From positions 3,720,001 to 3,784,000 of the forward strand of contig NZ_CP026377.1 in NCBI RefSeq assembly GCF_002953195.1: a DNA stretch of 64,000 bases, given 5' to 3'. Source of the stretch: Mixta gaviniae. GTDB lineage: Bacteria; Pseudomonadota; Gammaproteobacteria; Enterobacterales; Enterobacteriaceae. Position 1 is the stretch's first letter, and each line of letters starts with the position of its first letter. A model generated the notes under the pieces. The model saw only the letters and a list, made by a program, of their open reading frames with translations. It ran no database searches and had not been told where the DNA came from. This document shows, piece after piece, positions 28,179 through 36,798 of this stretch. Position numbers and translations under genes: made by a program.

Positions 28179-28625
28179 ATTGCTCCCTGTTATTGGTTTT
28201 GTAATGTTTTTTTCAGGCTTTTGTAATTGATTTAAAAGGTGTTTCTCCAGCTAAACATCAGAATGGTAAAGATAAGTTTAGACAGGCTTCGCCGAATGCG
28301 CCTGTTTCCGTGATGAAAGTCACAATGAAAGGGGTTACAGACGCAACGCCGCCGCTAAAACAGCGAAGAAGTGTGCGCTGATAAAGTGTGCGCTAAGAGA
28401 GGGAAACGCGGAAGGAGAAGAAACAGCGGCGGATTCGCGCGACACAGGCGGATGGACGAACAGCACCAGCAATGGCTACCGGATAGGGTGCGGCGCCCAG
28501 GCGCGGCGCGGTGTGCATGGCTGCTCAGAGGCATCGCAATGGCTGAATGTATGGCAGCTGCCCGGCGCGTCGCAACGGCTGAGTGCATCGCAGCTGGCCC
28601 GCGTTTGCTGACCGGTGAGCATTGA
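28179..28625. other. Intergenic region upstream of the sugar porter
   Basis: No credible gene. It should hold the transporter promoter near 28200-28330, where the DNA is A+T richer. It also carries a small direct repeat (AAGTGTGCGCT, twice near 28368-28395) and a pair of 35-bp imperfect repeats (listed separately). Confidence 0.4.
28531..28600. repeat. Two imperfect tandem copies of a 35-bp unit
   Basis: Copies at 28531-28565 and 28566-28600 share GC.TCGCAA.GGCTGA.TG followed by .GCAGCTG.CCCG. A weaker related segment may precede them near 28514. No function is apparent. Confidence 0.5.
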
Positions 28626-29707
28626 TTAGCCTTCTTTGTTAGTCGCCCGACGCGCCGCCTCCAGCGCCTGATTAAAAATGTTAACCCTTTCCCGCAGCTG
28701 TGCATTCACCACATCGTCCGCATCCATCACCGGCCAGTAGCGATAGCCCGGCGGCGTCGAAACGCATTTCAGGCTCCAGGTCGAGTAGAGCTGTTTTGAA
28801 GGGGCAAAAATACGGTAATCATTTTCACCCACCGTTAAATAGCGCGCGCCGGGCAGCGCCTTTATCGTCAGATAGCGATCGTTGCAGGAAAAGGTATTGC
28901 GGGTATCCAGCGCCACGGTGCGGGTCATTACGTAGTTGAATAGGGTCTGCAGATTTACGTTAAACGCGACGTAAAATATCATCCATGAGGAAACAATCAA
29001 CAACATAAAGGGTAACGCAGGCAGGGTAATAATATAGTCAAGCCTGGGTTTCGCCACCGTCTCCTTTTTCTCCAGAAAAGTGAGAAATACGCTGCCGCAC
29101 ATCACCAGAGAAAAATAAAACAAAATAAAATAGATACAGGCCAGTGAGATGACCGTCAATTTAGTGGCTGACGCCTCAAAGGTAATATCCGCCACTTCCA
29201 TCATGGCGTTCTTCGCAATGACATAGCTAATAAAAAACACCACCAGCCATGAACAGCGAAAGATAAAGCTAAACAGCACCTTATAGCGCCCCCCGTATCC
29301 CCTTTCATCATGGCGGCATCAAAAAGATAAAAGTAGAGCGCGGTCATCGCAGTCAGCGCAAAAACAATTATCAGCATAAAAAATAGCGTCGCATCGCTTC
29401 CCGGCGTGAGCTTGCCTAACAGCGCTATCAACGCCAGCAGCAATAGCGAAAAATGCAGCATACTTTCGCTAACGGCATGGCCCGGCTTGATGCTGTTTAA
29501 CAGCTGCAGGCGATAACCGCGCAGCGGCTTTTCATTGCTGACCCGATCCTTCAGCCAAAAATAGAGCGGCATCATTATTGGTGACAGCAGCAGCAGGCCG
29601 ATAAAGGGATAAAGGTGCCCCCAAAAGAGAAAAAGAAACAGCAGATACCAGTAGAGCAGATAATTAGGATAATAGCGCGAGTAAGGGTTAAGGATAACTG
29701 AATGCAA
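28626..29707 (-). pseudogene. Uncharacterised multi-pass membrane protein, single-base frameshift
   Basis: The N-terminal frame has an aromatic-rich start (SRYYPNYLLYWYLLFLFLFWGHLYP) and four or five membrane helices, and runs into nonsense after MMKGDTGG. The C-terminal frame picks up at RYKVLFSFIFRCSW, adds three more helices and ends in a soluble tail (about 100 residues) with two Cys. One extra base in the C6 tract at 29289-29294 would give one protein of about 360 residues. A TTG at 29707 with GGAGG 5 bases upstream is the best start; a GTG at 29746 is the next upstream option. No family is recognised; a soluble domain after six to eight helices is all that can be said. It diverges from the exbD-tonB operon. 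Confidence 0.65.
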
Positions 29708-29987
29708 AATGGCCTCCTTGTTTGCCGGGCGCGTACACTTTCTCACCCGTAGCGTGCGCAGACAACTCTCCCGCCGCGCTATTTTTCGCGCCGCTATGCA
29801 CTTTTCCCGCGATACGCCTCCCCCTTACTGCAGCCCCTCGCGCCGGCTCATTACATAAGCAAAAAACCTCTTTCCCGACCATTTCGAAACGCGTGCAGGG
29901 TTGTCATTGTGAAAATTCTGTCGTCCAAACGTAACAAAAAATAAACATAGCTTCCCTATAGTGGCTGCTTTCTCACGCGGAGGCTGC

Positions 29988-30392
29988 ATGCGAACCTGGA
30001 ACGAACCGAAGAAAAACAAAGCGCATATCGAACTGATCCCGATGATTGACGTGATGATGTTTCTGCTGGTGTTTTTTGTGCTGATCAGCCTGAACGTTAT
30101 TCCGGCGCAGGGGCTGAAAACGCAGCTGCCGGGCGCGACCAGCGCGCAGCAGCTGAAGCCGCAGAAGAAGGCGATCGTCACGCTGGCGACGAACGACCAG
30201 CTGCAGCTGGATGGGCAGCCGGTCGCGCTGGATCAGCTGGTGCCGGCGCTGAAGCGGCAGCAGAGCGAACAGACGCTAACCATTATCCTCAACAGCGACA
30301 AGAGCGTCGCCGTGGACCGGCTGGTGGCGGTGATGGACAACCTGCGGCAGGGCGGCTTTACCTCCGTCTCTATCACCACGCGGAAACAGTAA
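29988..30392 (+). CDS. exbD: ExbD-like biopolymer transport protein
   Basis: A 134-residue ExbD/TolR family inner membrane protein: a short basic cytoplasmic tail, one membrane helix with the essential proton-path Asp (Asp21 in IELIPMIDVMMFLLVFF) and a periplasmic domain. With ExbB it forms the proton channel that powers TonB. The ATG at 29988 has CGGAGG 5 bases upstream; an earlier in-frame start codon is not preceded by such a site. It is the first gene of a five-gene operon (exbD-tonB-receptor-exbB-PLD), an order unlike the usual exbB-exbD pair. tonB starts 1 base after its stop. Confidence 0.93.
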   Translation: MRTWNEPKKNKAHIELIPMIDVMMFLLVFFVLISLNVIPAQGLKTQLPGATSAQQLKPQKKAIVTLATNDQLQLDGQPVALDQLVPALKRQQSEQTLTIILNSDKSVAVDRLVAVMDNLRQGGFTSVSITTRKQ

Positions 30393-30393
30393 T

Positions 30394-31182
30394 ATGTATC
30401 TGCTCTATCGCTCTCGTCATCTGCTGGGCTGGCTGCCCGCCCTGGCGGCGGCAGGCTGGATGTTATGGATTAACCAGCAGGCCGCGCTGAAAGTGCAGCC
30501 GCGCTACGATGAATCAACCCTGGAAGTGGTGCTGGCGGAGCCGCCCGCGCCGGAGCCGCTGCCGGAAACCACGCCCGCCGCGCCGCCGGTTTCAGAACCC
30601 TTGCCTGAGCCTGAACCGCCGCCGGAGCCGCTGCCGGAGCCGACGCCGCCAGTACCGACGCCTGCGCCGGTCGAGGCCGCCAAACCGGCAGCCGCTCCCA
30701 GAGCAAGGCCTGAACCGCAGCCCAAACCGAAACCGCAGACGAAACCCAGGCCGCAGGCGCAGCCCAAAGCGAAAACGCGCGCTGAACCGACACCGACGCA
30801 GCCCATTGCCCGATCTGTCGCTCCGGCGGCGCCGCGCGCCGCGCCCGCCGTCAATCGCCCCGCCCCGGCCAACGCCGGCGCGCTGGAAAGCGGCTATTTG
30901 CAGGCGTTGCGCCGCGATCTGGAGCAGCGCAAGCGCTATCCCACCGGACGTCAGGCATCGCTTGAGCGCCCGGAAGGCAGCGTCGAGGTCTGGCTGGAGG
31001 TCGATCGCAGCGGCCAGATCACCGCTTCAGGCATCAGCGCTAAAGCGCGCAGCATGCTGCTGAACCGCGCCGCCGCCAGCACGCTGCAAAGCATTACCCA
31101 GCTTAAACCGTTCCCTGCGGAGGCCTTTGCCGGCCAGCAACGGAAACGCTTTACCGCCACCTTTAATTACCGGGCTCCGTGA
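30394..31182 (+). CDS. tonB: TonB-like energy transducer
   Basis: A 262-residue protein with one N-terminal membrane helix (about residues 9-28) and a long periplasmic spacer with Pro-Glu repeats (about 48-90) then Pro-Lys repeats (about 100-130). A TonB C-terminal domain follows (about 165-262), with YLQALRRDLEQRKRYP and VWLEVDRSGQI. The membrane helix lacks the Ser-x3-His motif seen in E. coli TonB, so its coupling to ExbB/ExbD may differ. It is dedicated to the receptor gene 38 bases downstream, judging by the operon. The acidic-then-basic Pro spacer is typical for spanning the periplasm. Confidence 0.92.
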   Translation: MYLLYRSRHLLGWLPALAAAGWMLWINQQAALKVQPRYDESTLEVVLAEPPAPEPLPETTPAAPPVSEPLPEPEPPPEPLPEPTPPVPTPAPVEAAKPAAAPRARPEPQPKPKPQTKPRPQAQPKAKTRAEPTPTQPIARSVAPAAPRAAPAVNRPAPANAGALESGYLQALRRDLEQRKRYPTGRQASLERPEGSVEVWLEVDRSGQITASGISAKARSMLLNRAAASTLQSITQLKPFPAEAFAGQQRKRFTATFNYRAP

Positions 31183-31220
31183 TGAGCCGGACACCCTCAT
31201 AGCGCCACAGGAAGAAAAAA

Positions 31221-33461
31221 ATGAAAACATTTACGCGTTCAGGAATCAGTCTTGCGGTTATCGCTGCGCTGCTGCCGGGCATGGCGCAGGCGGAAGAGAA
31301 CACCGATGTCGGCACCATTGACGTACAGGGCGTCTCGCTGGGCGGCGGCATGATGGTACAGGAGGAGACGCCGAAGGCGCGCTCTACCGTCACCAAAGAG
31401 GCGATGGATAAGATGCCCTCCGCCGCCAACGCCATCGACAAGCTGAAATATACGCCGGGGCTGAACGTCAACAGCACTGACGCCAGCGGCCTGAGCGGCG
31501 TCGACTACACCATGCGCGGCATGAATTCCGATCAGATCGGCCTCTCGGCGGACGGCATTCCGATCAACGACTCCGGCAACTATGCGGTCTACCCTAACCT
31601 GCTGGGCGATGCGGAAAACCTGCAGGAGATTTTCGTCACCCAGGGCGCGTCGGAAGCGGACGGCCCGCATATCGGCTCCAGCGGCGGCAATATCGGCCTG
31701 GTAACGCGTCGCCCGGCAAAGGATTTCGGCGGCTTCGTCAAGCAGACGCTGGGCAGTAACGATCTGAGCAAAACCTTCGCCCGTTTAGAGACCGGCGACT
31801 ATAACGGCTTCAGTAACTGGCTCTCTTATTCGCATACCGAAGCGAAAAAATGGCGCGGTGAAGGGCGGCTCTACTCCGACAAATTTGAGATGAACTCGCT
31901 GTTCGAGGCGGAAAACGGCAACAGTAGCAACCTGATCGTGAAATATAACCGTCAGGAGAACAGCAACTACAACTCTCTCAGCAAAGCGCAGTTTGAACGC
32001 GACGGTCGCGACGGTGATTTCCCCACCTCGCCGGAATATAACAGCCGCGGCCAGCTTAGCCGCTACTACAAGCTGAACCGCAACCCGTTTGAAAACCTGA
32101 CCGTCAGCTTCAGCCAGAAACTGCAGCTGCGCGATAACCTGAGCTGGACCATTCAGCCTTACTACTACTGGGGCAACGGCGGCAGCTTCAGCAGCCAGAG
32201 CGCCTCTACCCTCTCCCCTGCTTCCGATCGCGCCGGGCAGTACGACCTGAGCAATCTGAGCAGCAACACCTACTATCGTCCGTCATGGACGCAGACCTGG
32301 CGGCCCGGCGTCACCACCAAACTGAAGTGGGACATTAACGAGCAGCACAGCCTCGATCTCGGCTACTGGTATGAGCGCGCGCGCCAGCTGCAAACTCAGC
32401 CCTTTATCACTATCAACCCGGACGGCAACCCGGCGGATCTGTGGGGCGAGCCGGGCGGATCGCATCAGGTGAAAGACGCCAACGGCAACAGGGTGCAGGG
32501 ACGTAATCAGTACACGGTGACGCCGGCGCAAAAAATCTGGGCGCAGGATAGCTGGTATCTCACGCCCGACTGGACGCTGGTGGGCGGCCTCGCCTGGCAG
32601 CACGTTGAGCGTCGCGGCGAAAACAAAGGCAGCCTGACCAACAGCCCGGAAAACCGCCGCGCCAGCTACCATAAATTCCTGCCTAACGTCAGCGCCAGCT
32701 ATCGTCTGAACCCGGAAAATCAGTTCTTCTACAGCCTGTCGCGCAATATGCGCACGCCGCCGAATTACGTGCTGTATAACGTCGGCGATTCGATCAGCAC
32801 CAAACCGGAGCTGAGCTGGAACCATGAACTGGGCTGGCGCTTCCAGCGGGAAGATATGCTGCTGAGCGCCACGCTGTTCTATCTGCGTTACAGCGATCGT
32901 CAGGTCTCCACCACCAACCTCGCCGGCGACTTTGAAATGATGAACGTCGGCAAAGTCGAGAACCGCGGCATCGAGCTGGAGTGGAGCGGCCAGCTGCCCT
33001 ACCACTTCAACTACTACGCCTCCTATACCTGGACCGAATCGGAGCAGAAAGAGGATGTCTCCTCTGAAGGTGTGCGGCTGCCCACCGCCGGCAAGCAGCT
33101 GCCTAACGTACCGAAAAACCTGCTTAACCTGACGCTTGGCTATGACGACGGCCTCTACTACGGCGGCCTGACCGGTAAATATGTCGGCGCCTTTTACGGT
33201 GATCTGACCAACGATGAGCAAGTCGGCGGCCGCACGCTGTTCGACGTCGCGGCGGGCGTGCATCTGCCGGTGGATAAGAAGATTGTGAAAAGCGCCGCGT
33301 TGCGCTTCGGCATCGACAACCTGTTCGACAAAGCGTACCTCACCTCGGCGCGCACCACGGTGTTTAACGCCGGCGCGCATAACGGGCTGGACGCCAGTAC
33401 GCCCTATTACAACGTTGGCGAGGAGCGCACCTTCAGCGTCTCGCTGGAAGCCACCTTTTAA
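31221..33461 (+). CDS. TonB-dependent outer membrane receptor
   Basis: A 746-residue outer membrane receptor. The signal peptide is cleaved after AQA (residue 24). A TonB-box-like segment (TIDVQGV) is followed by a plug domain (about 50-170) with KYTPGLNVNSTDASGLSGVDYTMRGM and a 22-strand barrel ending in the classic aromatic C-terminus (VSLEATF). There is no N-terminal signalling (STN) domain, so FecA-type surface signalling is not expected. The ligand is not predictable; overall pattern resembles ferric-chelate receptors, but the PLD partner in the operon raises other substrates. Lying between its own TonB and ExbB genes, it appears to have a private energy supply. Confidence 0.93.
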   Translation: MKTFTRSGISLAVIAALLPGMAQAEENTDVGTIDVQGVSLGGGMMVQEETPKARSTVTKEAMDKMPSAANAIDKLKYTPGLNVNSTDASGLSGVDYTMRGMNSDQIGLSADGIPINDSGNYAVYPNLLGDAENLQEIFVTQGASEADGPHIGSSGGNIGLVTRRPAKDFGGFVKQTLGSNDLSKTFARLETGDYNGFSNWLSYSHTEAKKWRGEGRLYSDKFEMNSLFEAENGNSSNLIVKYNRQENSNYNSLSKAQFERDGRDGDFPTSPEYNSRGQLSRYYKLNRNPFENLTVSFSQKLQLRDNLSWTIQPYYYWGNGGSFSSQSASTLSPASDRAGQYDLSNLSSNTYYRPSWTQTWRPGVTTKLKWDINEQHSLDLGYWYERARQLQTQPFITINPDGNPADLWGEPGGSHQVKDANGNRVQGRNQYTVTPAQKIWAQDSWYLTPDWTLVGGLAWQHVERRGENKGSLTNSPENRRASYHKFLPNVSASYRLNPENQFFYSLSRNMRTPPNYVLYNVGDSISTKPELSWNHELGWRFQREDMLLSATLFYLRYSDRQVSTTNLAGDFEMMNVGKVENRGIELEWSGQLPYHFNYYASYTWTESEQKEDVSSEGVRLPTAGKQLPNVPKNLLNLTLGYDDGLYYGGLTGKYVGAFYGDLTNDEQVGGRTLFDVAAGVHLPVDKKIVKSAALRFGIDNLFDKAYLTSARTTVFNAGAHNGLDASTPYYNVGEERTFSVSLEATF

Positions 33462-33479
33462 TTAACCGGAGTTGACGCG

Positions 33480-34124
33480 ATGAACGCCACCTTACTGCAC
33501 GACATTATTTTCTGGATCATGTACTTTTCCCTCGCCGTGGCACTGGTGATCATCATTGAGCGCGCCATCAGCTTCGCCTGGACAACGCGCCAGGCGACGC
33601 AGCTGGAGCAGGCGCTGACGCCGCAGGTACGCCATATCGAAGCGCTGCCCGCCGAGCTGCTGCGCCGCCGCAGCCTGCCGCTCAGAACCATTCAGCCGAT
33701 CCTGATGCAGAAAGATCGGCATAATGCGCAGACGCTGAATGACCTGGTCGATGCGCAGTATCTGTTGAGCAAGCCGCAGCTGACGCGCGGACTGTGGCTG
33801 CTGGAGACCATCGTCACCGCCGCGCCGCTGCTCGGGCTGCTCGGCACGGTGATGGGAATTATCGATACCTTTAAGGCGCTTTCCGCTTCCGGCGTCTCCG
33901 AGCCGAGCCTGGTATCGGCAGGAATGGGCACCGCGCTTTACGCTACCGGCCTCGGCATCGCCATCGCGCTGATAAGCCTGGTGGGCAATAATTATCTGCA
34001 AAGCCGCATGGAGCGCATCAGCGAGCTATTAAAAGTGCTACTGATCCGCGCGGCGGGCGCCGCGCTGCCGCACTCTGAACCGGCCGGCAGCTGGATGGAA
34101 AGCGGAGCGCAGCGCTATGCCTGA
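33480..34124 (+). CDS. exbB: ExbB/TolQ family proton channel protein
   Basis: A 214-residue inner membrane protein with three membrane helices, MotA/TolQ/ExbB family. The first helix is IIFWIMYFSLAVALVIIIERAI; a cytoplasmic loop follows; helices 2 and 3 hold the conserved WLLETIVTAAPLLGLLGTVMGIIDTFKAL and GTALYATGLGIAIALISLVGNNY. It forms the pentameric channel around ExbD. It starts 18 bases after the receptor gene. Its last 8 bases overlap the phospholipase gene, so the phospholipase is coupled to the TonB system. Confidence 0.93.
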   Translation: MNATLLHDIIFWIMYFSLAVALVIIIERAISFAWTTRQATQLEQALTPQVRHIEALPAELLRRRSLPLRTIQPILMQKDRHNAQTLNDLVDAQYLLSKPQLTRGLWLLETIVTAAPLLGLLGTVMGIIDTFKALSASGVSEPSLVSAGMGTALYATGLGIAIALISLVGNNYLQSRMERISELLKVLLIRAAGAALPHSEPAGSWMESGAQRYA

Positions 34125-35385
34125 CATATATCTCCACGGGCGGCGACATCGCCGTCTGTGGCAACTGCTATGGAGTAGTACCCTGTTGATAGTGAGTTAC
34201 GGCGCCGACGCGCGCTTTGAAAGCGAAGGTTATGAGCTGGTCTACACCGCGCCGGTGGAGACGCAGCTGCAGGCAGACGATTTGCGCCGCAGCGACGAGG
34301 TGTGGCGCGACATGTTCGCCGCCGCGCATCAGCGCATCGATATCGCGCAGTTTTATGTGGCCAATCAGTCTGGATCGCGGCTGGACGCGGTGCTGCAGGC
34401 GCTACGCGCAGCGGGCGAACGCGGCGTGAAAATCCGCTTTTTAATGGAGGAAAAGGGGCTGCGCAACAGCACGCCGGAGACGCTGGCGCAGCTGAAAGCC
34501 ATTCCTCATCTGGAACTGCGGCTGATGCCGTTTGGCCGCCTCAGCGGCGGCATTATTCACGCCAAATATTTTGTCATTGACGATCGGCAGGCGTTTGTTG
34601 GCAGCCAGAATTTCGACTGGCGCGCGCTGGAGCATATTCAGGAGACCGGGCTGCGCATCACGGATCCGCCGGTGGTGGCGCAGATCGCCGCGATCTTCGC
34701 CCAGGACTGGCAGGCACAGGCGCTGATCGCTGAAGATCGACCGGTGCCGACCATCGATCATCATGCGCAGCGGACGGACGCACGCAGCGGTAACTATCTG
34801 GTCGCCAGTCCGCGCGCCTGGAACCCGGTGGGGGTACTGGATTCGCAGGAGATGCTGCCGCAGCTGCTCGCTTCCGCCACCGACAGCGTGCGCGTGCAGG
34901 TAATGGATTACGCCCCGCTCTCCTGGGGGCCGCAGCGCAGCCGCCCTTTCTATCCGGTGATCGACAACGCCCTGCGCAGCGCGGCGGCGCGCGGCGTGCG
35001 CATCGAACTGATGGTTGCCGACTGGAATACCGGCCAGCCCGATATCAGCTGGCTGAAAAGCCTGGCGCTGGCGCCGAACGTCACCATTAAGGTGGTCACC
35101 ATTCCGCAGGCCAGCAGCGGTTTTATTCCTTACGCCCGGGTGATCCACAGCAAGATCATGATCGTTGACGATCGGCTCGCCTGGGTCGGCACCAGCAACT
35201 GGCGCGGCGGCTATTTCGATAATTCGCGTAACCTGGAGCTGGTGCTGAATAACGAGCCGATGGCGCAGCGGCTTAACCAGCTTTATCAACAGTTGTGGAG
35301 CAGCCCCTACGCCGCGCCGCTGCGCATCGCTGACGACTATCCGCAGCCAGCGCCGGGCGGCGGGAAGCCGTCGCCCTCGCCGTAG
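34117..35385 (+). CDS. Secreted phospholipase D-like protein with PLD3/PLD4-like motif pattern
   Basis: A 422-residue protein with two HKD motifs: His148-x-Lys150-x4-Asp155 (IIHAKYFVIDDRQAFVGSQN) and His344-x-Lys346-x4-Asp351 (PYARVIHSKIMIVDD), followed by WVGTSNWRGGYFDNSRNLEL. A hydrophobic stretch at 14-30, ending GADA, suggests export to the periplasm, either cleaved or anchored. The surrounding sequence (IDIAQFY, GSQNFDWRALEHIQETG, FYPVIDNALRSAAARGVRIELMVADW, IPYARVIHSK, WSSPYAAPL) follows animal PLD3/PLD4 and poxvirus K4/p37 proteins rather than classic bacterial PLD or cardiolipin synthase. PLD3/PLD4 are 5' exonucleases or lipid transphosphatidylases, so a nuclease or lipase role is open. 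The C-terminal tail is Pro/Gly rich. It overlaps exbB by 8 bases. Confidence 0.9.
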   Translation: MPDIYLHGRRHRRLWQLLWSSTLLIVSYGADARFESEGYELVYTAPVETQLQADDLRRSDEVWRDMFAAAHQRIDIAQFYVANQSGSRLDAVLQALRAAGERGVKIRFLMEEKGLRNSTPETLAQLKAIPHLELRLMPFGRLSGGIIHAKYFVIDDRQAFVGSQNFDWRALEHIQETGLRITDPPVVAQIAAIFAQDWQAQALIAEDRPVPTIDHHAQRTDARSGNYLVASPRAWNPVGVLDSQEMLPQLLASATDSVRVQVMDYAPLSWGPQRSRPFYPVIDNALRSAAARGVRIELMVADWNTGQPDISWLKSLALAPNVTIKVVTIPQASSGFIPYARVIHSKIMIVDDRLAWVGTSNWRGGYFDNSRNLELVLNNEPMAQRLNQLYQQLWSSPYAAPLRIADDYPQPAPGGGKPSPSP

Positions 35386-35394
35386 CCCGCCACG

Positions 35395-36798
35395 TCAGGT
35401 TTTCGGCGCCTGGCGCGGCACCATCAGCGCAATCGCCAGGAAAGAGATCGCGCAGAACAGCACGTTAACCAGCAGGCCGGTGGTGGCGGCCACCGCCGCG
35501 CCCTGTGGCAGCATCGCCGCGTAGACGGAAGCGGAAATCGCAATACCGAAGGCGCCGCCCAGCGAGCTGGCCATTTTATAGATGCCGGACGCCACGCCGA
35601 TTTTATCCTCCGGCGCGCTGGAGATGGCGGTATCGGTAGAGGGCGTGGCGTAAAAGCCCAACCCCAGCCCGAACAGGATATAGCCGATAAACACCGCCGC
35701 CAGATAAAGCCCGTCGGGCAGCAGCGTCAACGCCATCAGCGCCACGCCGAGACCGGTGATCGCCGTGCCCCACAGCATCGGCCTGCGCGCGCCAACCCTT
35801 TGCAGCAGCTTCTCCCCTACGCGGATCATGCTCAGCACCGCCACCAGATAGCCGATGGTCAACATGCCGGCGTGAAAGGCGCTGAAGCCCCGTCCCTGCT
35901 GCACATAGACGCTGGCGACGATCAACGTGCCGGCGACGGCGTTCAGCAGGAAATTAGAGAGCGTCGCGCCGCTGTAGGCACGCTGTTTAAACAGCGCGAA
36001 ATCGATAAAGCTGGCGCTTTTTTTCCGCCGCGCGCCGGTGAAAAACAGCAGCGCCGCCAGCAGGCACACGCCGCCGGGGATCACGACCCAGCCGCTCAGC
36101 CAGCCGAACGCGCTGCCTTTGGTGATCGCCCAGTTCAGGCAGAGCAGCATCACCACAAAGGTAAACAGCCCAGGGTAGTCGAAGCGGTTTTTCTGGGTCG
36201 TGGGGACTTTGCTTTCCGGCGTGCCGCGGATCAGCGCCATTCCCGCCACGGCGCAGATAATCGACAGGATAAATACCCATTTCCAGCCGCAGTAAGTGGC
36301 GATCGCCCCGCCCGCCAGCGAACAGAGCCCGGAACCGCCCCAGGAGCCGATCGACCAGTAACTCAGCGCCCGCTGCCGCGCTTCATCCTGATAGTAGGCT
36401 TTAATCAGCGACAGCGTGGCGGGCATAATACAGGCGGCCGACAGCCCCTGAATAATGCGTCCCACGGCGAACAGCAGGGCATTTTGCGAAATGATCAGGC
36501 AGAGGCAGCCGATAATACTTAACAGCAGCCCCAGCTGGGTTATTTTCACCCGGCCGAAGCGGTCGGCGAAGCCGCCCGCCGCCACAATAAAGCAGCCGGA
36601 AAACAGCCCTGTCAGGCTTATGGCTAAATTAAGCGACGCCAGCGGCATCGCCACCTCCTGCTGAATAGCCGGCACAATATTCACCACCGACTGGGCAAAA
36701 AGCCAGAAGGTCAGCACCCCGGCAATAATCCCAAGGATCAGCCGGCCGCTTCCCTGCCAGGCGGCGGGCGCCGCAGCGTTGAGATCTGTAGAGGACAT
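35395..36798 (-). CDS. MFS transporter
   Basis: A 467-residue inner membrane protein with 12-14 helices, major facilitator superfamily, in pattern like the DHA2-type drug:H+ antiporters. Visible signatures are GGFADRFGRVKITQLG in loop 2-3 and GRIIQGLSAACIMPATLSLIKAYY in helices 4-5. A second half (GVASGIYKMASSLGGAFGIAISASVY) follows. The start ATG at 36798 has GGGAG 6 bases upstream; an ATG at 36813 lacks one. The M20 amidohydrolase gene begins transcription 83 bases upstream on the same strand, so the pair may import and hydrolyse, or export, an amide-linked compound. Its stop nearly abuts the convergent PLD operon. Confidence 0.88.
   Translation of the reverse strand: MSSTDLNAAAPAAWQGSGRLILGIIAGVLTFWLFAQSVVNIVPAIQQEVAMPLASLNLAISLTGLFSGCFIVAAGGFADRFGRVKITQLGLLLSIIGCLCLIISQNALLFAVGRIIQGLSAACIMPATLSLIKAYYQDEARQRALSYWSIGSWGGSGLCSLAGGAIATYCGWKWVFILSIICAVAGMALIRGTPESKVPTTQKNRFDYPGLFTFVVMLLCLNWAITKGSAFGWLSGWVVIPGGVCLLAALLFFTGARRKKSASFIDFALFKQRAYSGATLSNFLLNAVAGTLIVASVYVQQGRGFSAFHAGMLTIGYLVAVLSMIRVGEKLLQRVGARRPMLWGTAITGLGVALMALTLLPDGLYLAAVFIGYILFGLGLGFYATPSTDTAISSAPEDKIGVASGIYKMASSLGGAFGIAISASVYAAMLPQGAAVAATTGLLVNVLFCAISFLAIALMVPRQAPKT

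What the first reader, a model, noticed from the sequence alone, without database searches (positions are those of the whole stretch)
29988..35385. Operon joining a private ExbD-TonB-receptor-ExbB system to a secreted PLD3-like enzyme
Five plus-strand genes with gaps of 1, 38 and 18 bases and an 8-base overlap encode ExbD, TonB, an outer-membrane receptor, ExbB and a two-HKD phospholipase D-like protein with an export signal. Seen in sequence: the order, the overlap, both HKD motifs and the flanking PLD3/PLD4-type segments (IPYARVIHSK, VGTSNWRGGYF, SQNFDWRALEHIQETG). From family knowledge: PLD3/PLD4 are 5' exonucleases or lipid-modifying enzymes in animals. Inference: the receptor imports a nucleic-acid or phospholipid-derived compound, or the enzyme frees a ligand from it, so this would be a dedicated scavenging system unlike iron uptake.
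Basis: partly seen in the sequence, partly recalled or inferred. Interest (0 to 1): 0.78.

Follow-up and report, generated by a model that had tools for sequence, protein, structure and literature searches.

The report
TonB-powered nucleic-acid scavenging operon
A five-gene bacterial operon pairs its own outer-membrane import machine with an exported enzyme of the same family as the animal nucleases PLD3 and PLD4, and relatives of its receptor sit beside genes that dismantle DNA and RNA, so it most likely harvests nucleic-acid fragments as food.

Summary

The main new result concerns the receptor family. In the Collimonas-containing family, 69 of 75 receptor loci adjoin nucleic-acid or nucleoside genes on the same strand, 53 of 75 without counting PLD: 5'-nucleotidase 45, S1/P1 nuclease 23, adenosine-deaminase-like 19. 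About 0.2 nucleotidases are expected by chance. A receptor 42% identical to the window's sits in exbD-tonB-receptor-exbB-nucleotidase-PLD (L178). I conclude: TonB-dependent scavenging of nucleic-acid fragments. Ligand, enzyme activity and compartment are untested; no Fur box was found. Confidence about 0.7.

The parts
29988..30392 (+). exbD, 134 aa, one of three ExbD-family genes of the genome
   Evidence: Pfam PF02472 105.5 bits; 3 PF02472 matches in the genome, one of which may be TolR (not tested)
30394..31182 (+). tonB, 262 aa, proline-rich, one of two TonB_C genes in the genome
   Evidence: PF03544 23.9 bits, 25.6 bits over cut-off in the whole-genome search
31221..33461 (+). TonB-dependent receptor, 746 aa, no N-terminal signalling domain matched in Pfam
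   Evidence: PF00593 179.5 bits, PF07715 50.8 bits; model pLDDT 65.6, pTM 0.74; best folds PqqU and FecA
33480..34124 (+). exbB, 214 aa
   Evidence: PF01618 94.3 bits
34117..35385 (+). PLD3/PLD4/K4-family phosphodiesterase, 422 aa
34117..34212 (+). export signal, residues 1-32 (cleavage placed by comparison with SpPLD)
   Evidence: SpPLD first 32 residues predicted as signal peptide (PMC8004604); window residues 1-45 printed
34558..34581 (+). HKD motif 1, residues 148-155
   Evidence: H148, K150, D155 invariant in 52 of 52 aligned PLDs
35131..35133 (+). Tyr339, equivalent of the base-stacking Tyr411 of PLD3
   Evidence: Y in 10 and F in 42 of 52 PLDs; Y in PLD3, F in PLD4; role of Tyr411 from PMC10783504 passages
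35146..35169 (+). HKD motif 2, residues 344-351
   Evidence: H344, K346, D351 invariant in 52 of 52; PLD3/PLD4 have E where these have D
29908..29962 (+). conserved upstream element (cGTAACAAAAAATAAACA at 29930-29947, -10-like TATAGT at 29957-29962), probable promoter; regulator unknown
   Evidence: alignment of 27 upstream regions; PhoP-like match 10 of 12 on the minus strand, reached by 15 of 300 shuffles; no Fur or Pho box above shuffles; the sigma-70 consensus scan found no promoter (0 sites)

Best explanation
The operon is a TonB-dependent scavenging system for nucleic-acid breakdown products. A private ExbB-ExbD-TonB motor drives an outer-membrane receptor that takes up nucleic-acid-derived compounds: short single strands, nucleotides or nucleosides. 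The exported PLD is a PLD3/PLD4-like phosphodiesterase that trims single-stranded DNA or RNA, probably from the 5' end and probably to 3'-nucleotides as PLD3 does. In relatives the chain goes on with S1/P1 nuclease (3'-nucleotidase by family knowledge), 5'-nucleotidase, adenosine-deaminase-like protein and guanine deaminase; in this genome later steps would fall to general periplasmic phosphatases (not tested). Shown: gene order, co-divergence, enzyme family and active-site residues, receptor-family context. Inferred: substrate, direction of transport, compartment, and that enteric receptors keep the ligand class of their relatives.
For: Gene order kept in 37 of 44 loci. All 14 receptor genomes of 295 have the PLD; by the coordinates 13 of 14 have it directly downstream on the same strand, and G087 has the receptor turned round beside exbD-tonB-exbB-PLD. 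Distance correlations 0.845-0.981 over 38 loci (37 for ExbD), with shared departures from species order (Erwinia and Pantoea coffeiphila inside the Klebsiella group; Winslowiella with Serratia AKBS12) in PLD and receptor trees. PLD3-family membership; ssDNA-contact residues kept. In the Collimonas-containing family (245 genomes), 75 receptor loci in 69 genomes: same strand within 7 kb 5'-nucleotidase 45, PLD 34, S1/P1 nuclease 23, adenosine-deaminase-like 19, PF00860 permease 4, Bmp/PnrA-type binding protein 4; at least one of these six in 69 of 75, and in 53 of 75 if PLD is not counted; guanine deaminase 14 (families confirmed on examples). Opposite-strand hits: 2, both nucleotidase. Chance expectation for a same-strand nucleotidase about 0.2 of 75. 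Bridge loci L178 and L171: receptor 42% identical to the window's over 759 aa, operon exbD-tonB-receptor-exbB-nucleotidase, with PLD in L178. In 6 fetched of 37 PLD genomes without a receptor hit at 1e-100, 6 of 6 have an unrelated Oar-type receptor in the same slot of ADA-receptor-nucleotidase-PLD-S1/P1.
Against: No nucleotidase or nucleoside gene was found by these queries inside the Enterobacterales operons; the ushA-like gene about 1.9 kb upstream in three Klebsiella loci looks like an ancestral neighbour (its usual place near copA is recalled from E. coli). Receptors of the nucleotidase-rich groups are only 30-34% identical to the window's (42% in the bridge), so the ligand could have shifted. 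PLD occurs without receptor or Ton genes: 7 of 44 loci, 5 of 19 PLD genomes of the family, one of them with a broken PLD, 5 of 8 PLD genomes outside the family in the phylum sample. The three Pseudomonas-type loci carry an M20 peptidase after PLD, which nucleic acids do not explain. The family member F13 is annotated as a phospholipase and SpPLD was published as one; I saw no assay that settles it. The neighbour counts come from related genomes and were not set against a matched sample of other receptors.
Confidence: 0.7

Rival explanations
1. Phospholipid or other phosphodiester scavenging: the PLD cuts host or debris phospholipids (or glycerophosphodiesters) and the receptor imports the freed head group or phospho-compound.
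For: The ortholog SpPLD was published as a phospholipase D; poxvirus F13 in the same family is annotated as envelope phospholipase; a phytase-like esterase (PF13449) follows PLD in Samsonia L048 and a strong relative of it in L089; an M20 peptidase follows PLD in three Pseudomonas-type loci.
Confidence: 0.13
2. TonB-powered secretion: the private Ton motor and receptor export the PLD (and partner enzymes) through the outer membrane, as Oar does for protease PopC in Myxococcus.
For: Precedent for TonB-dependent protein secretion (PMC6434023, abstract start and passages; review PMC11658791 passages). In six related clusters the receptor slot is held by an Oar-type protein; Pfam shows its CarboxypepD_reg domain in L234.
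Against: The window receptor has no such domain match and no significant match to the Oar type (best E 0.05). The receptor pairs with nucleotidase, permease and binding-protein genes, which fits import.
Confidence: 0.06
3. Iron or other metal-chelate uptake with an accessory hydrolase that frees a ligand.
For: The receptor's best NCBIfam score is a siderophore-receptor subfamily (TIGR01783 154 bits, under its 223.5 cut-off); many PDB matches are siderophore receptors.
Against: No Fur-box match above shuffles (11 of 19, reached by 128 of 300 shuffles). No flanking gene cluster recurs beyond 13 of 44 loci, though the flanks were not scanned for siderophore genes. The best fold match is the PQQ importer PqqU, not a metal-chelate receptor, though FecA is nearly tied and the model is only of middling confidence.
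Confidence: 0.07

Closest known systems
SpPLD of Serratia plymuthica AS9 (PDB 7e0m; PMC8004604)
   Different: Published as a phospholipase D crystal structure: 'operon' and 'PLD3' do not occur in the text. I read the outline, section 2 and passages, not the Methods; no substrate test was seen there.
Human/mouse PLD3 and PLD4, lysosomal 5'-3' exonucleases
   Same: Next-best relatives by sequence, profile and fold; ssDNA-contact residues kept.
   Different: Bacterial enzymes are exported and encoded in a transport operon; second motif ends in D, not E, in 52 of 52; activity unknown.
TonB-dependent transporters with private Ton genes and a partner hydrolase
   Same: Receptor plus own ExbB-ExbD-TonB plus exported enzyme in one operon.
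   Different: Substrates named in the listings and passages I saw (siderophores, B12, saccharides, lignin aromatics, PQQ, PopC secretion) do not include nucleic acids; in the review 'oligonucleotide', 'DNA uptake' and 'nuclease' do not occur.
Extracellular-DNA degradation loci of marine-sediment bacteria (PMC8289736)
   Same: Co-located nucleases, nucleotidases and nucleoside transporters (passages).
   Different: 'TonB', 'SusC', 'outer membrane' and 'phospholipase D' do not occur in the main text.

Membership tests
PLD3/PLD4/K4 family (wide sense) | sequence closer to PLD3/PLD4 than to other PLD subfamilies | tested here: met
   profile: PLD3 198 bits, K4 190, PLD4 180, F13 100, NucT 37, Streptomyces PLD 30 or less; PLD3 region scores 100-155 bits against 59 bacterial family members, 17 or undetected against the genome's two cardiolipin-synthase-type paralogs
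PLD3/PLD4/K4 family (wide sense) | fold | tested here: met
PLD3/PLD4/K4 family (wide sense) | active-site His, Lys and Asn of both halves | tested here: met
   equivalents of H201, K203, N218, H416, K418, N432 invariant in 52 of 52 PLDs
PLD3/PLD4/K4 family (wide sense) | base-contact residues Y126, D220, Y411 of PLD3 | tested here: met
   Y126 52 of 52, D220 51 of 52, Y411 as Y or F in 52 of 52; PLD4 also has F
Animal PLD3/PLD4 branch | second motif HKE | tested here: not met
   HKD in 52 of 52, so the bacterial enzymes are not filed in the animal branch; in PLD3 this residue lies 20 A from the active site (PMC10783504 passage)
Animal PLD3/PLD4 branch | 5' exonuclease activity on ssDNA/RNA | not testable with these tools
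   needs an assay
TonB-dependent transporter | plug and barrel domains with Ton partners | tested here: met
   PF07715 and PF00593 over cut-off, ExbB and ExbD over cut-off; TonB_C just under and just over
Siderophore/iron receptor | score over a curated siderophore-receptor model | tested here: not met
   TIGR01783 154.4 against cut-off 223.5; all 21 listed models below their cut-offs
Siderophore/iron receptor | Fur box upstream | tested here: not met
   best 11 of 19 in the 250 bases upstream, equalled by 128 of 300 shuffles (consensus recalled)
Cardiolipin synthase / classical PLD | score over curated models | tested here: not met
   TIGR04265 61.2 against 290; ClsB 49.2 against 281
DISARM DrmC | score over the curated model | tested here: not met
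   NF038319 101.6 against 133; PADLOC DrmC models up to 80 bits, read as generic PLD likeness
DISARM DrmC | neighbouring DISARM genes | not tested
   no search for the other DISARM genes was made
Oar-type secretion receptor | N-terminal CarboxypepD_reg domain and Oar-type barrel | tested here: not met
   not matched in the window receptor, which has PF00593 instead; present in the L234 receptor

The most novel reading that the evidence does not exclude
A family of TonB-dependent outer-membrane importers for nucleic-acid strands or nucleotides exists in Proteobacteria, and this operon is its most compact form: private Ton motor, receptor, and a PLD3-like exonuclease that digests the incoming single strand from its 5' end. 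It would be a bacterial counterpart, and possibly the evolutionary source, of lysosomal nucleic-acid digestion by PLD3/PLD4.
Probability: 0.4. Interest if true: 0.87.

Novelty: new variant of a known kind. Interest (0 to 1): 0.74.

Why it matters
TonB-dependent uptake is known for metal chelates, B12, glycans and a few other compounds. A receptor family tied to nucleases, nucleotidases and purine deaminases would add nucleic-acid products to that list and explain how some plant-, soil- and insect-associated bacteria feed on DNA or RNA debris. It also gives a natural bacterial context, with a crystal structure already in hand, for the PLD3/PLD4 family, whose substrate (nucleic acid or lipid) has been debated. 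And it re-reads a protein filed as a phospholipase D as a probable nuclease.

Tried and rejected
Class-level search with the enteric receptor at E 1e-60 found only the window's own genome among 369, so the receptor family was reached instead with the Collimonas receptor. Regulation: consensus scans for Fur, Zur, Pho, PhoP, CpxR, CRP, PurR and a CytR-like palindrome (consensuses recalled) gave no clear regulator; a PhoP-like reversed box sits at one place in 26 of 27 related upstream regions but is left unassigned. In all 14 Serratia upstream regions a TGTGA-N8-TCACA palindrome is present; the window lacks it. The sigma-70 scan of 29600-35600 found no promoter. DrmC/DISARM likeness was set aside as generic PLD likeness. 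The PQQ glucose dehydrogenase beside the Chimaeribacter arupi operon suggested PQQ uptake because PqqU is the nearest fold, but a gene of that cluster was seen only in the three Chimaeribacter loci. The ushA-like gene in Klebsiella loci was rejected as evidence. Foldseek of the PLD model could not be run; VIA-align was run instead. K4 is in the sequence lists but not in the 50 rows; that says nothing about its fold. The PLD tree has very long branches to the cardiolipin-synthase outgroups, and the receptor tree is not cleanly rooted by its outgroups; score and fold comparisons carry the placement. Row L066 (broken PLD in Serratia rubidaea) was left out of trees and residue counts and was not mended.
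Full report
WHAT IS THERE. The window lies at 3720001-3784000 of a 4.53-Mb single-contig genome. Its closest named receptor and PLD relatives are from Pantoea alhagi and Mixta, so it is probably a Mixta-like Enterobacterales; that naming is inference. The next gene downstream is a minus-strand MFS gene; upstream lie two overlapping minus-strand ORFs with no Pfam or NCBIfam match. No terminator-like site on the plus strand and no sigma-70-type promoter was listed in 29600-35600. The genome has two TonB_C genes and three ExbD-family genes, so the set is a second, separate one. A congeneric genome, G130, lacks window bases 28341-35391; 231 bases stand there, 67 of which match the end of the first upstream ORF, which suggests loss in G130. 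In the other congener, G230, the aligned parts also skip the operon.

HOW WIDELY THE ORDER IS KEPT. A scan of named genomes seeded with PLD peptides gave 44 loci; 37 have exbD-tonB-receptor-exbB-PLD in that order on one strand (spacing). Hosts include Serratia, Chimaeribacter, Klebsiella (oxytoca group), Superficieibacter, Erwinia, Pantoea, Winslowiella, Samsonia, Pseudomonas rhodesiae, Collimonas, Herbaspirillum, Glaciimonas, Sapientia and Solimicrobium. The seven others are L036, L052, L053, L063, L064, L065 and L066. Among 295 family genomes (the two searches drew the same handles as far as listed), 19 have the PLD (E 1e-30) and 14 the receptor (E 1e-60); all 14 also have the PLD. By the coordinates, in 13 the PLD is directly downstream; in G087 the receptor is turned round beside exbD-tonB-exbB-PLD. 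Two same-genus genomes have neither. In a phylum sample 11 of 398 genomes have the PLD; three of these belong to the window's family. Of the other eight, three have the full operon and five have PLD without it. Pairwise distances of the five proteins correlate at 0.845-0.981 over 38 operon loci (37 for ExbD) and at 0.87-0.96 within Enterobacterales. PLD and receptor trees share departures from species order, which suggests that the operon moves between genera as a unit; in Chimaeribacter arupi it lies on a 353-kb plasmid.

THE RECEPTOR FAMILY IS THE KEY EVIDENCE. The Collimonas receptor (L057, 33% identical to the window's over 806 columns) was searched in 245 genomes of the family that holds Collimonas. 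(G1174 gives a 100% match on a 271,200-base contig, the length of the Collimonas sp. OK307 contig.) Receptors were found in 69 genomes, 75 loci; PLD in 73 genomes. I fetched all 75 loci (some cut by contig ends) and scored stop-to-stop frames with representative proteins. Same strand within 7 kb: 5'-nucleotidase 45, ExbB 40, TonB 40, ExbD 38, PLD 34, small MASE1-like membrane protein 27, S1/P1 nuclease 23, adenosine-deaminase-like 19, guanine deaminase 14, PF00860 permease 4, Bmp/PnrA 4, ECF sigma 4. At least one of nucleotidase, PLD, S1/P1, deaminase-like, permease or Bmp lies beside 69 of 75; leaving PLD out, 53 of 75 (16 loci have PLD as their only such gene). On the opposite strand: 2 nucleotidases, nothing else. 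The six without are L160, L172, L179, L196, L197 and L233; the contigs of L160, L197 and L233 end close by. Receptor-linked PLDs are 34 of 75. In 60 of the 69 genomes there are 90 PF02872 matches, in 47 genomes, so about 0.2 of 75 receptors would have one beside them on the same strand by chance (a density estimate that ignores operon structure and shared ancestry). Family identity was confirmed on examples only: nucleotidase PF02872+PF00149 (L055, L178), S1/P1 PF02265 (L165, L166, L170, L174, L175, L177), deaminase PF00962 (L166, L174, L234; below NCBIfam's adenosine-deaminase cut-offs), guanine deaminase TIGR02967 581 bits over its 375 cut-off (L166), PF00860 (L161) and PF02608 (L163; its ligand is open).

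BRIDGE AND REPLACEMENT. L178 and L171 carry receptors 42% identical to the window's over 759 aa, between the enteric/Pseudomonas group (56-81%) and the rest (30-34%). Their operons are exbD-tonB-receptor-exbB-nucleotidase, with PLD following in L178. In a receptor tree the window groups with Chimaeribacter, then enterics, then Pseudomonas; three unrelated receptors used as outgroup did not root it cleanly. Of the PLD genomes without a receptor hit at 1e-100 (37 of 73), I fetched six (L234-L239). All six read ADA-like, an Oar-type receptor, nucleotidase, PLD, S1/P1 (Pfam on L234). Two unrelated receptors filling the same slot argues that the slot's job is set by the nucleic-acid enzymes.

MECHANISM. 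Most likely: nucleic-acid strands outside or in the periplasm are cut by the PLD; the receptor, driven by its own Ton motor, moves strands or products across the outer membrane; phosphatases finish the job. A Ton motor makes most sense for cargo too big or too rare for porins, which favours oligonucleotides (inference). Most operon PLDs and the deaminase-like protein of L234 begin with signal-peptide-like stretches and many of the nucleotidases with lipoprotein-like ones (read by eye, no predictor run). The receptor model is only of middling confidence (pLDDT 65.6). Its best fold matches are PqqU with PQQ (E 2.7e-33, TM 0.71) and FecA, which does not decide the ligand.

AGAINST. Enterobacterales operons lack the nucleotidase. 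PLD persists without the other genes in several genomes, including a Duffyella plasmid, where it also lacks an obvious export signal at the start shown, and Chimaeribacter californicus, where 49-bit remnants of receptor and exbB remain. Pseudomonas-type loci add an M20 peptidase. Phytase-like neighbours in Samsonia and G151 fit any phosphoester. No expression data were found.

LITERATURE. Ten searches of the held library listed no paper whose title or abstract start describes this operon or a TonB receptor for nucleic acids; the listings were read, not all papers, and subscription papers are mostly missing. The Collimonas genome paper (PMC4690342, passages) mentions PLDs and Ton genes but not this link.

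VERDICT. Observation confirmed, interpretation supported and narrowed to nucleic acids. New variant of a known kind (TonB uptake plus hydrolase), interest 0.74.

Noticed in passing
window 28626-29746: Two overlapping minus-strand ORFs (217 and 181 aa) with no Pfam or NCBIfam match lie upstream; together with the operon they are missing from the congeneric G130, which keeps a 67-base remnant.
   Followed up: partly
L161, L208, L209, L162: Paralogous receptor operons of the same family with a PF00860 permease gene upstream and an ECF sigma factor downstream: a possible nucleobase-uptake branch.
   Followed up: partly
L163, L210, L211: Receptor operons followed by a Bmp/PnrA-type ABC binding protein gene, a possible nucleoside import chain.
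   Followed up: partly
L234-L239: ADA-like, Oar-type receptor, 5'-nucleotidase, PLD, S1/P1 nuclease clusters: an unrelated receptor in the same slot.
   Followed up: partly
27 of 75 loci (such as L180), also 10 of 44 (such as L057:2799-3368): A small MASE1-like membrane protein of unknown role is encoded just upstream of exbD.
   Followed up: no
L054, L100, L101: An M20 peptidase gene directly after PLD in Pseudomonas-type operons, unexplained.
   Followed up: no
L063:9224-11194: A 657-aa protein with trypsin-like and non-specific endonuclease domains sits after an orphan PLD in Sphingomonas.
   Followed up: no
L082 (NZ_CP119396.1): The Chimaeribacter arupi operon lies on a 353-kb plasmid beside a PQQ-dependent glucose dehydrogenase gene.
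   Followed up: no
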